The notes under the pieces: generated by a model | Told to the model about the DNA's origin: nothing | Seen by the model: the letters and a program-made list of their open reading frames with translations, nothing else | The model's database searches: none | Shown here: piece by piece, positions 30,710 to 33,987 of the stretch | Numbering within the stretch: the first letter of the stretch is position 1 | How the letters are laid out: every line of letters starts with the position of its first letter | Made by a program: the position numbers and the translations under genes | Assembly: GCA_903868795.1 (NCBI GenBank) | Contig: CAIPWR010000112.1 | Location: 1-35,282 of the forward strand | Reading direction: 5' to 3' | From: an uncultured Spartobacteria bacterium | GTDB taxonomy: Bacteria; Verrucomicrobiota; Verrucomicrobiia; Chthoniobacterales; UBA6821 | Length of the DNA: 35,282 bases

Positions 30710-31708
30710 TCAGAGTTCGACAGTGTCGCCGAATTCAACCTTCAGATTCCTTGCAAGGCGGATGAGCTCCGGCGCGGGATGTTTTTTCTTTCCGATCACC
30801 TGATCAAGATCGATCAGTGTGGCGCGTCCCTTGGAGAGTGCGGTCATGCATCCCGTTTCCTGCTGGAGAAGTCCCATGACGGCTAGTTCGCCGAATCTGG
30901 CGCCAAGCATGCGATCAAAGTGCGTTGGTATGCCCCCGCGCTGCACATGGCCCAGGACAGTGATTCGTATTTCCTGCTCGAATTCCCCGCCTGGAACGGC
31001 TTCCTGCATGCGCTCCATGAAGTTTACGGCACCGCAGACCCCTTCGGCCAGCATCACAATGGAATTATCCTGAGCCTCCTGATAGCGCTGGTGAAGAACC
31101 GAGACGATTTTCTCCATGTTATAACGGAACTCGGGAATGACAGCAACCGTGGCACCCGAACTGATAGCCGTGGTGAGGGCGAGGTAGCCAGAATTACGAC
31201 CCATTACCTCGATTAGGAAGCACCGACGGTGGGATCGTGCCGTGTCACGAATCCGGTCGACTAACTGCATGATCGTGTTGGTGGCAGTATCGACACCGAT
31301 GGCCATTTCCGTGCCGGAGAGGTCGTTGTCGATGCTGGCGGGTATGCCAACGACAGGCATGCCTCGCCTTGCGAGTTCGCGTGCTCCCGTCAGCGAACCA
31401 TCACCTCCGATGACCACCAAGCCGTGGATGCCTAGTTCGGCAAGTCGAGATCTTGCTGCATCCACTCCTTCGGAGCTGTACATCCTTTTGCAACGGCTCG
31501 ACTGGAGGATTGTCCCTCCCCGATCGATGATGGCTGCCAGACTGCGATTCCCGAGCTCTTCGACAGTACCATCAAAAATCCCGTCATAGCCGTTGGAAAT
31601 GCCGATGACTCGACAGTTTTGCTGAGATGCCGTTCTTGCGACTGCGCGAATCGCCGGATTCATTCCCGGAGCATCTCCACCCGAAGTCAATACGCCGATG
31701 GTTTTCAT
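30710..31708 (-). CDS. pfkA: ATP-dependent 6-phosphofructokinase
   Basis: The 332-aa glycolytic enzyme phosphorylates fructose-6-phosphate. It has the N-terminal GVLTSGGDAPGMNPAIRA ATP loop, VVIGGDGSLTGA (Gly after GGD typical of ATP rather than PPi enzymes), the catalytic GIPASIDNDLSGTEMAIGVDTA with the essential Asp (usually P-x-TIDND, here SIDND), EVMGRNSGYLAL, and the F6P-binding VLGHVQRGGIPTHFDRMLGARFG. Length is typical of the short bacterial PfkA. It is transcribed away from the PhoB-like gene. The membrane protein lies 61 bp downstream on the same strand and may be co-transcribed. Confidence 0.95.
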   Translation of the reverse strand: MKTIGVLTSGGDAPGMNPAIRAVARTASQQNCRVIGISNGYDGIFDGTVEELGNRSLAAIIDRGGTILQSSRCKRMYSSEGVDAARSRLAELGIHGLVVIGGDGSLTGARELARRGMPVVGIPASIDNDLSGTEMAIGVDTATNTIMQLVDRIRDTARSHRRCFLIEVMGRNSGYLALTTAISSGATVAVIPEFRYNMEKIVSVLHQRYQEAQDNSIVMLAEGVCGAVNFMERMQEAVPGGEFEQEIRITVLGHVQRGGIPTHFDRMLGARFGELAVMGLLQQETGCMTALSKGRATLIDLDQVIGKKKHPAPELIRLARNLKVEFGDTVEL

Positions 31709-31789: not shown

Positions 31790-31819
31790 TTGAACGAACA
31801 CCCAAGGCGGATGTCGAAT
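31790..31819 (+). promoter_or_regulatory. Candidate promoter in front of the orphan hairpin
   Basis: TTGAAC (31790-31795), an 18-base spacer and TCGAAT (31814-31819) form a plausible plus-strand promoter. Transcription would start near 31826 and immediately enter the hairpin ending at 31900, giving an RNA of about 75 bases or an attenuated leader for the response-regulator gene. Confidence 0.3.
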
Positions 31820-31839
31820 TAAATAGGTTAACAATGGGG

Positions 31840-31900
31840 GCGGGCCGCCTCGTTTCGGTTTTATGGTTTTTCCGGGGCGAATCAGGCGGCCCGCTTTTTT
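31840..31900 (+). terminator. Long hairpin plus U tract upstream of the two-component genes
   Basis: A perfect 11-bp GC-rich stem (GCGGGCCGCCT 31840-31850 / AGGCGGCCCGC 31884-31894) continues inward as an 8-bp stem with three G-U pairs (31851-31858 / 31872-31879), closes on a 13-base loop and is followed by six T residues (31895-31900). It has the form of a strong plus-strand intrinsic terminator, but no plus-strand gene lies upstream because pfkA points the other way. It may end a small RNA or attenuate transcription into the response-regulator gene. Confidence 0.8.
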
Positions 31901-32014
31901 GTGGCCGTGCTCTCTGAAGGCAAACGAAACATTCCAAAGAGGCACTTGCCACCATGACGTCACTCGGGTAGCTCCTACGGGGTAAACGGGATTCCATTAT
32001 CCACCACCCACACC

Positions 32015-32707
32015 ATGTCTGAAACAATTCTTGTTATTGAGGATGAAGAGGATGTTTCTGACTTGATCCGATATCATCTGAAAAAAGCCAAGCTGCGCGT
32101 CATCGTTGCAGCTGATGGTGTCGAGGGGTTGGCATTGGCGACCGAGGAGCGTCCTGACGCGATCATTCTCGATATCATGCTTCCCCGGCTCAACGGATTC
32201 GAGGTGGCCAAAAAATTAAAAGCCAATGAGCGGACGGCGACTATTCCGCTTCTGATCCTTAGTGCCAAGGGCGAGGCGGATAGCCGGATCAAGGGACTTG
32301 AACTGGGGGCCGATGATTATCTGCCCAAACCATTCAGTCCGAGGGAACTACTTCTCAGGATCCAATCCCTTTTGAAAAGGGCGCGTCCCACCGTGGTTTC
32401 AGAATCGACTTCTTCGGGTCCTTTTGTTCTGGATCGTACGTCCTTGAAGGTGACGCTTGATGGAGAGCGAATCGAGCTGACTTCAACGGAATTCAAATTG
32501 TTATCTCTTCTCATCGGAAAGGGAGGGGCAATACAATCCCGTGAGGAGTTGCTCCACGAGGTCTGGGGATATCGCAGCACGGTCGATACCCGTACGGTCG
32601 ACACCCATATGCGACGCCTCCGTGAAAAACTGGGCACTCATGCCTCCTATTTGGAGACGGTTCGCGGTGAGGGGTACCGTTTCATGGCGCCGACATCGCT
32701 CAACTGA
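32015..32707 (+). CDS. OmpR/PhoB-family response regulator
   Basis: The 230-aa regulator has a receiver domain (1-120) with the acidic pair Glu9-Asp10, phospho-acceptor Asp53 (ILDIMLPRLNG), Ser/Thr in LILSAKG and Lys in LPKPFSPREL. A winged-helix output domain follows (about 135-228) with ELTSTEFKLLSLLI, HEVWGY and the recognition helix TRTVDTHMRRLREKLG. The sequence is closest in feel to PhoB, the phosphate-starvation regulator, but this is not proven. No pst or phoU genes are near, and I see no clear Pho box upstream. Its stop overlaps the kinase start by one base. Confidence 0.92.
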   Translation: MSETILVIEDEEDVSDLIRYHLKKAKLRVIVAADGVEGLALATEERPDAIILDIMLPRLNGFEVAKKLKANERTATIPLLILSAKGEADSRIKGLELGADDYLPKPFSPRELLLRIQSLLKRARPTVVSESTSSGPFVLDRTSLKVTLDGERIELTSTEFKLLSLLIGKGGAIQSREELLHEVWGYRSTVDTRTVDTHMRRLREKLGTHASYLETVRGEGYRFMAPTSLN

Positions 32708-33987
32708 TGAAGGAAGCCCTCCTCTGGGGTGCCGGCTTTTTGTTCGCCGGGAGTTGCCTCTGGTGGATCATTTTTTCCGTTGTCCTCCCGGCGGGTGAAC
32801 TGTTGGAAGTTCTCAGGAGAATAGCAGATGGGGATTTTAGGCCGGTGATTCTGAGCGGATTGCCAAGGCTCTTCAGGCAGCATGCCGGTGAGTTGCGGGT
32901 CATTGCGGAAACGCTTGCTCGTCAAAAAAGCCTTCTGGCCGAGGAAGAAATCAGCATCTCCGTCATTCTCGAGAGCATGACGGAAGGAGTGGTCATCACC
33001 GGTGAAGATCTGCGTATTCGTTTGGTGAACAAGGCCGCGGTCGCGATGTTCAATCTTCGTGGAGACGTGAAGGGGCTCTTGCTGCCGGAGGTCTTCATGG
33101 GTCATGAACTCCAGGGGGTGGCACAACGTGCGGCTACAACGGGTGAAGTGCAGCGAGGGGAACTGACCCTTGGTATTCCTGGCAGAAGCGAACGCTGCCA
33201 TCTCGTGGTGACTGCCGCCACGCTTAATGCCCCCGACCTAGAGTCTTCAGGTGGATGCCTCATGGTGTTACATGACGTCACAAGGCTTCGAGAATTGGAG
33301 TCGGTGAGGAGGGAATTCGTGGCCAATGTTTCTCACGAGTTTCGCACGCCTTTATCGATCATTAACGGCTACTTGGAGACGCTTCAAGAGGGAGGGGTGG
33401 GTCGTGAGATGATGAGAAAGTCAATCACCGTGATGCGCCGGCATGCCGATCGGTTGAACCATTTGATTGAGGATCTTCTCACCATCAGCCGCATGGAGGA
33501 GAAGGGAGGGAGCCTCGAAACCATTCCAACGGATGTGGGGGTGCTCTTGACGAATGTAATTGAGCATTTGGAAAGCGAAGTGAAGGAGCGCGGCGCACGT
33601 GTCAGACTGGAAGTGCCTTCAGGCCTCCCTGCGATCAATGTAGACGGATACAGGATTGAACAAGCCTTCTCAAATCTTCTGGTCAATGCGCTTCGACATG
33701 GCGTTTCCCAGGAAGGCGGCGGGGGTGATGTCGTGATCAGCGTCTTGCTTCAGGGGTCCGAAATGGCAATCAGTTTCCGCGATCAAGGCCCTGGCATTCC
33801 ACTCCATGATCAGGAACATATTTTCGAACGTTTTTATCGTGTCGGCGGCGACCGTACCCGACACACCGGAGGCACTGGTCTGGGATTGTCGATTGTGAAA
33901 AATGTGGTCCAAGCCCATGGAGGGCGTGTGGCGCTCTCGAGTCGTCCCGGGGAGGGATCCACTTTTACGATTTTTCTTCCGGTGTAA
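32707..33987 (+). CDS. PhoR-like sensor histidine kinase
   Basis: The 426-aa kinase has a single N-terminal membrane segment (about residues 4-30), a short linker, a PAS-like domain (about 90-195, starting ESMTEGVVITGEDLRIRLVNKAAVAMF), a HisKA dimerisation domain with phospho-acceptor His210 in FVANVSHEFRTPLS, and an ATPase domain with the N box (NLLVNALRHG), G1 (FRDQGPGIP), F box (IFERFYRV) and G2 (GGTGLGLSIVKNV). There is no large extracellular sensing domain. This is the PhoR layout, where the signal comes through partner proteins or the PAS domain. It is co-transcribed with the response regulator. Confidence 0.93.
   Translation: MKEALLWGAGFLFAGSCLWWIIFSVVLPAGELLEVLRRIADGDFRPVILSGLPRLFRQHAGELRVIAETLARQKSLLAEEEISISVILESMTEGVVITGEDLRIRLVNKAAVAMFNLRGDVKGLLLPEVFMGHELQGVAQRAATTGEVQRGELTLGIPGRSERCHLVVTAATLNAPDLESSGGCLMVLHDVTRLRELESVRREFVANVSHEFRTPLSIINGYLETLQEGGVGREMMRKSITVMRRHADRLNHLIEDLLTISRMEEKGGSLETIPTDVGVLLTNVIEHLESEVKERGARVRLEVPSGLPAINVDGYRIEQAFSNLLVNALRHGVSQEGGGGDVVISVLLQGSEMAISFRDQGPGIPLHDQEHIFERFYRVGGDRTRHTGGTGLGLSIVKNVVQAHGGRVALSSRPGEGSTFTIFLPV

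What the first reader, a model, noticed from the sequence alone, without database searches (positions are those of the whole stretch)
31790..31900. Orphan terminator: small RNA or attenuator before the two-component operon
A 19-bp nested hairpin with a six-T tract lies on the plus strand, with no plus-strand gene upstream. A plausible promoter sits just before it. Either a short RNA of about 75 bases ends here, or the hairpin conditionally stops transcription into the response-regulator and kinase genes 115 bp downstream.
Basis: partly seen in the sequence, partly recalled or inferred. Interest (0 to 1): 0.55.

Follow-up and report, generated by a model that had tools for sequence, protein, structure and literature searches.

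The report
Envelope-stress-type small RNA gene beside phoB
The lone terminator is the 3' end of a short, about 75-base RNA gene with its own stress-type promoter, conserved for shape and promoter across many Verrucomicrobiota relatives, so it looks like an undescribed regulatory small RNA and not a switch for the neighbouring genes.

Summary
The hairpin is real: 11+8 pairs and six T (31840-31900), the most stable terminator-like structure in the window. It is conserved in 15 of 16 same-genus genomes and, less closely, in other families of the order. Over 36 copies, 15 of 19 pairs show compensatory double changes and 94.9% of cells pair. The conserved promoter is not sigma-70: GAAC-N17-GTC (ECF/sigma-E type) precedes 47 of 49 copies. 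The response-regulator operon has its own conserved promoter-like element after the terminator. A sister genus has lost the regulator gene, keeps the RNA (up to six copies per genome at unrelated loci, 14 of 15 with the promoter), and has exactly one ECF sigma factor, an RpoE-like one orthologous to one in the window's genome. Some other genes carry the same promoter (MoxR-type ATPase, secreted Hsp20-like protein). Best reading: a trans-acting small RNA of an RpoE-like envelope-stress response, working like MicA/RybB or FoxI/FoxJ, in bacteria where no Hfq was found. It matches no Rfam family. The attenuator reading is not favoured: the leader has no room for an anti-terminator, and the RNA outlives the operon. 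Transcription, sigma dependence and targets are inferred.

The parts
31790..31815 (+). ECF/sigma-E-type promoter, TTGAAC-N17-GTC (-35 GAAC 31792-31795, -10 GTC 31813-31815)
   Evidence: invariant TTTGAAC-N17-GTC in 15 of 15 genus copies; GAAC-N17-GTC in 47 of 49 copies across families
31822..31900 (+). predicted small RNA of about 75-79 nt (start inferred, about 6-10 nt after the -10 element)
   Evidence: conserved block in 15 of 16 genus genomes; covariance models R1/R2; no transcript data
31822..31839 (+). short single-stranded 5' tail (AGGTTAACA...; GGTTAAGGC... in other families), possible seed
   Evidence: alignments and listings
31840..31894 (+). terminator hairpin, 11 + 8 pairs, U-rich apical loop at 31859-31871
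31895..31900 (+). T6 tract of the intrinsic terminator
   Evidence: T tract in all genus copies
31946..31974 (+). separate conserved promoter-like element of the response-regulator operon (TTGCCA-N17-TAGCTC)
   Evidence: CTTGC and TCGG-TAGC conserved in the 15-sequence alignment; function inferred
32015..32707 (+). PhoB-like response regulator (neighbour, not part of the RNA gene)
   Evidence: best NCBIfam model PhoB, below its cut-off
32707..33987 (+). PhoR/PnpS-like histidine kinase (neighbour)
30710..31708 (-). pfkA, 6-phosphofructokinase, divergent neighbour

Best explanation
A free-standing small-RNA gene. An RpoE-like ECF sigma factor (in this genome at G000:C154, followed by a protein with one hydrophobic segment that is probably its anti-sigma) transcribes it from GAAC-N17-GTC at 31790-31815. 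The transcript of about 75-79 nt has a short 5' tail and one long hairpin and ends at its own intrinsic terminator at 31900. It then acts in trans, most likely by base pairing of its 5' tail and/or apical loop with translation-start regions of envelope-protein mRNAs, lowering their synthesis during envelope stress. Shown by comparison: the promoter, the structure, the terminator, and independence from the neighbouring operon. Inferred: transcription, the sigma factor involved, pairing mode, targets, and repression as outcome.
For: Present in 15 of 16 genus genomes, each with one strong copy, beside pfkA and the regulator. Structure: 7 of 19 pairs with double changes in 15 genus sequences (MAFFT alignment); 15 of 19 in 36 sequences, 94.9% paired against at most 40.1% when slid. 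Promoter: 47 of 49 copies have GAAC-N17-GTC, any other spacing at most 2 of 49. ECF promoters are described as AAC at -35 and CGT at -10 (PMC8103513 and PMC3426412, passages). In the sister genus (6 genomes) the regulator gene is gone (0-1 weak hits, E 1e-5 to 1e-9), yet 15 RNA copies exist, mostly at unrelated loci, 14 with the promoter. That genus has three sigma-70-type factors per genome and one ECF only, 64-69% identical to the RpoE-like ECF of this genus; nearest NCBIfam model RpoE. Other genes with the promoter: MoxR-type ATPase (verified in 4 genomes of both genera), secreted Hsp20-like protein (2 genomes), envelope proteins; 46 hits against 12 control hits in 22 genomes. R2 finds the RNA at E<1e-8 in 60 of 213 genomes of the order; that ECF was found in 56 of those 60.
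Against: No RNA-seq or term-seq was available. None of the 20 ECF-type sigma genes examined carries the motif upstream, although autoregulation is usual for ECF factors. ECF presence does not predict the RNA: 198 of 210 genomes of the order have a match to that ECF, but only 60 of 213 a strong match to the RNA. Outside f1 the RNA mostly stays just upstream of a response-regulator gene, which could point to a cis role. The exact short pattern in the own genome alone is at chance level (18 hits against 22 control). No target was tested.
Confidence: 0.72

Rival explanations
1. A cis-acting leader: the hairpin is an attenuator, and regulated read-through (for example by a protein binding the conserved loop) feeds the PhoB-PhoR-like operon.
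For: Same strand, just upstream of the operon in 15 of 15 genus loci and in 18 of 33 other regulator loci of the order that were examined (13 of 15, 5 of 18); conserved loop.
Against: Sister genus keeps and multiplies the RNA without the regulator. The operon has its own promoter-like element after the terminator. About 18 nt of leader, with outer terminator pairs at 0.99 or more in the read-through leader except the innermost of them at 0.4, leaves no room for an RNA anti-terminator. In G053 the RNA (C2) lies on another contig than the regulator hit of L029 (C65).
Confidence: 0.13
2. Both at once: a small RNA whose terminator also leaks, so that ECF stress raises the two-component operon.
For: Conserved ECF-type promoter upstream of the operon on the same strand; the distance to the ATG is compatible.
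Against: Near-perfect outer stem and T5-T8 in nearly all genus copies suggest strong termination; weaker T tracts only in some other families.
Confidence: 0.1
3. A plain insulating terminator with no RNA function.
For: Strong hairpin between divergent genes; in one genus of f7 an exonuclease-III-like gene seems to end just upstream on the same strand (inspection).
Against: In f1 no plus-strand gene lies upstream. A conserved promoter at fixed spacing, a conserved loop and 5' tail, and dispersed copies each with a promoter are not expected of an insulator.
Confidence: 0.04
4. A very short coding gene in the 79-nt transcript.
For: An ATG at about 31833 opens a short frame in the window (by inspection).
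Against: The frame is shifted by single-base length changes and the ATG is not conserved among the 15 genus sequences, while base pairs are kept by compensatory change.
Confidence: 0.01

Closest known systems
FoxI and FoxJ of Fusobacterium nucleatum (PMC11005410, passages read)
   Same: sigma-E-dependent small RNAs outside Proteobacteria in a bacterium without Hfq; FoxJ has its likely seed in a hairpin loop and was first annotated as a 5' UTR of a coding gene
   Different: FoxJ is about 156 nt with a C-rich seed and tested targets; here about 75 nt, one hairpin, U-rich loop, targets untested
MicA, RybB and MicL of E. coli/Salmonella (PMC8103513 and PMC11005410, passages)
   Same: short RNAs from RpoE-dependent promoters, forming the non-coding arm of envelope stress
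   Different: those work with Hfq (recalled); no Hfq found in 58 relatives here; no sequence similarity claimed; dependence and targets untested here
Rfam release 15 families
   Same: none reached its gathering score
   Different: 0 matches in the window and 0 in 17 related loci; best sub-threshold hits 17.7 bits of 60 and 17.4 of 72.2

Membership tests
ECF/sigma-E-dependent small RNA | ECF-type promoter (AAC at -35, CGT-like at -10) just upstream | tested here: met
   GAAC-N17-GTC in 47 of 49 copies; CGTC in several families; sequence match only
ECF/sigma-E-dependent small RNA | ends at an intrinsic terminator | tested here: met
   (predicted)
ECF/sigma-E-dependent small RNA | conserved RNA structure independent of neighbouring genes | tested here: met
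ECF/sigma-E-dependent small RNA | genome encodes a suitable RpoE-like ECF factor | tested here: met
ECF/sigma-E-dependent small RNA | transcript made only when the sigma factor is active | not testable with these tools
   needs RNA-seq and a sigma mutant
ECF/sigma-E-dependent small RNA | represses envelope mRNAs by base pairing | not testable with these tools
   no target test was made
MicA/RybB-like Hfq-dependent sRNA | works with Hfq | tested here: not met
   PF17209 in 0 of 58 relatives, controls positive
Transcription attenuator of the downstream operon | mutually exclusive anti-terminator pairing | tested here: not met
   about 18-nt leader; no competing fold
Transcription attenuator of the downstream operon | found only with the operon it controls | tested here: not met
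   sister genus lacks the regulator and keeps the RNA
Any Rfam 15 family | score at or above the gathering threshold | tested here: not met

The most novel reading that the evidence does not exclude
This is one branch of a phylum-level family of ECF-driven small RNAs in Hfq-less Verrucomicrobiota. Their business end is the apical loop (U-rich with a central G in most families; a CU-rich, anti-Shine-Dalgarno-like loop in f4 and f5), and the loop module recurs in a second order (f15: GGUUUUUGGGUUUUUCC) under a different ECF-like promoter (GAAAC-N17-CGTT). Loop-to-start-region pairing, or a loop-binding protein in place of Hfq, would then be the working principle.
Probability: 0.35. Interest if true: 0.75.

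Novelty: new member of a known kind. Interest (0 to 1): 0.6.

Why it matters
Envelope-stress small RNAs are known from Proteobacteria and lately from Fusobacteria. My searches found no paper on such an RNA in Verrucomicrobiota (open-licence library only). If true, the non-coding arm of an RpoE-like response exists in a third, distant phylum without Hfq, with a promoter motif, a covariance model and a candidate sigma factor that make it directly testable. The multi-copy sister genus is a natural experiment on how such RNAs multiply after separation from their home locus.

Tried and rejected
Attenuator, insulator and peptide readings: see rivals. A sigma-70 promoter before the hairpin: the scan found none there. 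Rfam: nothing, even at loose thresholds. R1 on 24 other loci (18 from genome contigs, 6 of the order) gave nothing convincing, although four of those six order loci hold diverged copies that I saw by eye. ECF autoregulation as proof of the cognate sigma: no motif upstream of the 20 sigma genes examined; elimination in the sister genus was used instead. ECF co-occurrence does not discriminate. Start-codon targeting by the loop (its complement contains AUG-AAA in many genus members) was dropped by inspection because the window's own loop and several others lack it; no computed target search was made. Weak phylum hits outside f15 (L271, L274-L280, L285) look mostly like ordinary GC-rich terminators and were not counted, nor was L287 of f15 (inspection).

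Full report
Observation. The hairpin is as described. It has 11 outer pairs, 8 inner pairs, a 13-nt loop and T6, at 31840-31900. It is the most stable of 30 terminator-like candidates in the window. The left neighbour is pfkA on the minus strand. On the right are a PhoB-like response regulator and a PhoR/PnpS-like kinase, both below the NCBIfam cut-offs of those names.

Conservation in the genus. The whole-genome search gave 14 other same-genus genomes with an orthologous regulator (70-97% identity) and pfkA beside it. Aligning the intergenic stretch of all 15 shows three conserved blocks: TTTGAAC-N17-GTC, then the hairpin with its loop and T tract, then CTTGC...TCGG-TAGC some 40 nt before the regulator's ATG. 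The first spacing is exactly 17 in 15 of 15. The RNA model R1 finds the element in 15 of 16 genus genomes. The miss is G011, 76% complete, whose best regulator hit is only 55% identical. R1 finds one match in the window's genome even at E up to 1. Other genus genomes have at most further weak matches (E above 0.1), some of them the opposite strand of the same hairpin.

Structure. On the MAFFT alignment of 15 genus sequences, 93.7% of cells pair, 7 of 19 pairs show double changes (shuffles 3.3), and sliding the partner drops pairing to at most 54%. On 36 copies from f1 (both genera), f7, f10 and f13, fitted to the model and so leaning towards it, 94.9% pair, 15 of 19 pairs show double changes, and slides give at most 40.1%. 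I chose 34 source loci for that set and left out, among others, L162-L164, whose tandem hairpins also match on the opposite strand.

Beyond the genus. Nine regulator loci from f7, f10 and f13 carry the element upstream, and four more from f2, f4 and f5 were found by eye: 13 of 15 non-genus loci of the first fetch. In a second fetch of 18 regulator loci chosen to cover other families, 5 have it (f4, f5) and 13 do not (f2, f3, f6, f9, f12). In f4 and f5 the promoter, a GGTTAAGG 5' tail and the terminator are kept, but the loop is CU-rich. R2 matches 67 of 213 genomes of the order at E<=0.05. Sixty of these have E<1e-8, and the other seven are weak. Most f4/f5 copies escape R2 in that scan.

Promoter. 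GAAC-N17-GTC precedes 47 of 49 copies checked; L166 has N18 and L180 has none. Any other spacing occurs in at most 2 of 49 (L166 by inspection). ECF sigma factors are described as reading AAC at -35 and CGT at -10 (PMC8103513, PMC3426412; passages). The likeness to the E. coli RpoE consensus is recalled; a paper search for it returned nothing. In 22 genomes of f1, TTTTTGAAC-N17-GTC gives 46 hits against 12 for the reversed control. Eleven of the 46 are this RNA. Among the rest, by ORF inspection and Pfam, are a MoxR-type ATPase in four genomes of both genera, a secreted Hsp20-like protein in the window's genome and G005, and several genes with signal-peptide-like starts. Others lie inside ORFs and are probably chance. 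Not all hits were fetched.

Independence from the operon. Sister genus g2 has 0-1 weak regulator hits per genome. It keeps the RNA: 15 copies in six genomes, up to six per genome (G020), mostly next to unrelated genes. Fourteen of 15 have the promoter. In three g2 genomes the copy beside pfkA carries two tandem hairpins behind one promoter. Each g2 genome has only three sigma-70-type factors: an RpoD, an RpoD-like protein and one ECF (the first two named by length and sequence, not by a family scan). That ECF is 64-69% identical to the RpoE-like ECF of the window's genus, which is followed by a 157-aa protein with one hydrophobic segment and no Pfam match. By elimination it is the likely cognate factor. 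The weak points: it lacks the motif in its own upstream region, and its relatives are nearly universal in the order (198 of 210 at E<=1e-30).

Mechanism. The transcript (start inferred near 31822) would be 75-79 nt, with an 18-nt tail, a long hairpin and T6. The read-through leader folds with the same terminator (outer pairs at 0.99 or more except the innermost). No Hfq was found in 58 relatives while controls rang. I infer base pairing by tail and/or loop with translation-start regions of envelope mRNAs, as in FoxI/FoxJ (PMC11005410, passages) and MicA/RybB. This is the least certain step.

A second order. In f15 of the same class, R2 finds related hairpins with the loop GGTTTTTGGGTTTTTCC. 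One type (L267, L269, L273, L282) has GAAAC-N17-CGTT upstream in 4 of 4, again an ECF-like pattern. The other type (L266, L268, L270, L272, L283, L284, L286) has none of that, and a TTGAC-type promoter by my pattern in 3 of 7. Whether these are homologous or convergent is open.

Taxon. No tool named the window's organism.

Literature. Four searches for small RNAs in Verrucomicrobiota, Akkermansia and Chthoniobacter (listings only, plus passages of PMC9029176) showed no description of this RNA. The library holds open-licence papers only.

Noticed in passing
L267, L269, L273, L282 (f15, another order): Small-RNA-like hairpins with the loop GGTTTTTGGGTTTTTCC behind GAAAC-N17-CGTT (4 of 4), an ECF-like promoter; a second type beside a biotin-carboxylase-like gene shares the loop but not the promoter.
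   Followed up: partly
L162, L163, L164 (sister genus, beside pfkA): Two tandem near-identical hairpins behind one ECF-type promoter where the window's genus has one hairpin followed by the regulator operon.
   Followed up: partly
L196, L200, L211, L252: The same GAAC-N17-GTC promoter upstream of a MoxR-type AAA ATPase in four genomes of two genera; G004:C108 and G019:C141 have near-identical motifs but were not examined.
   Followed up: partly
L239 (G000:C131, own genome) and L201: Secreted Hsp20-like protein gene about 27 nt after the same promoter motif: a candidate periplasmic chaperone of the regulon.
   Followed up: partly
L034, L035, L038, L326-L330 (f4, f5): Orthologous RNAs with CU-rich loops (for example ACUCCUUGG) instead of the U-rich loop, suggesting an anti-Shine-Dalgarno seed.
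   Followed up: no
L023:1383-1430 (same-genus genome G015): A second palindromic stretch (AGTGAAGCACTGATTTAATCAGTGCTTCACT) between this terminator and the regulator promoter, seen in this genome only among the 15.
   Followed up: no
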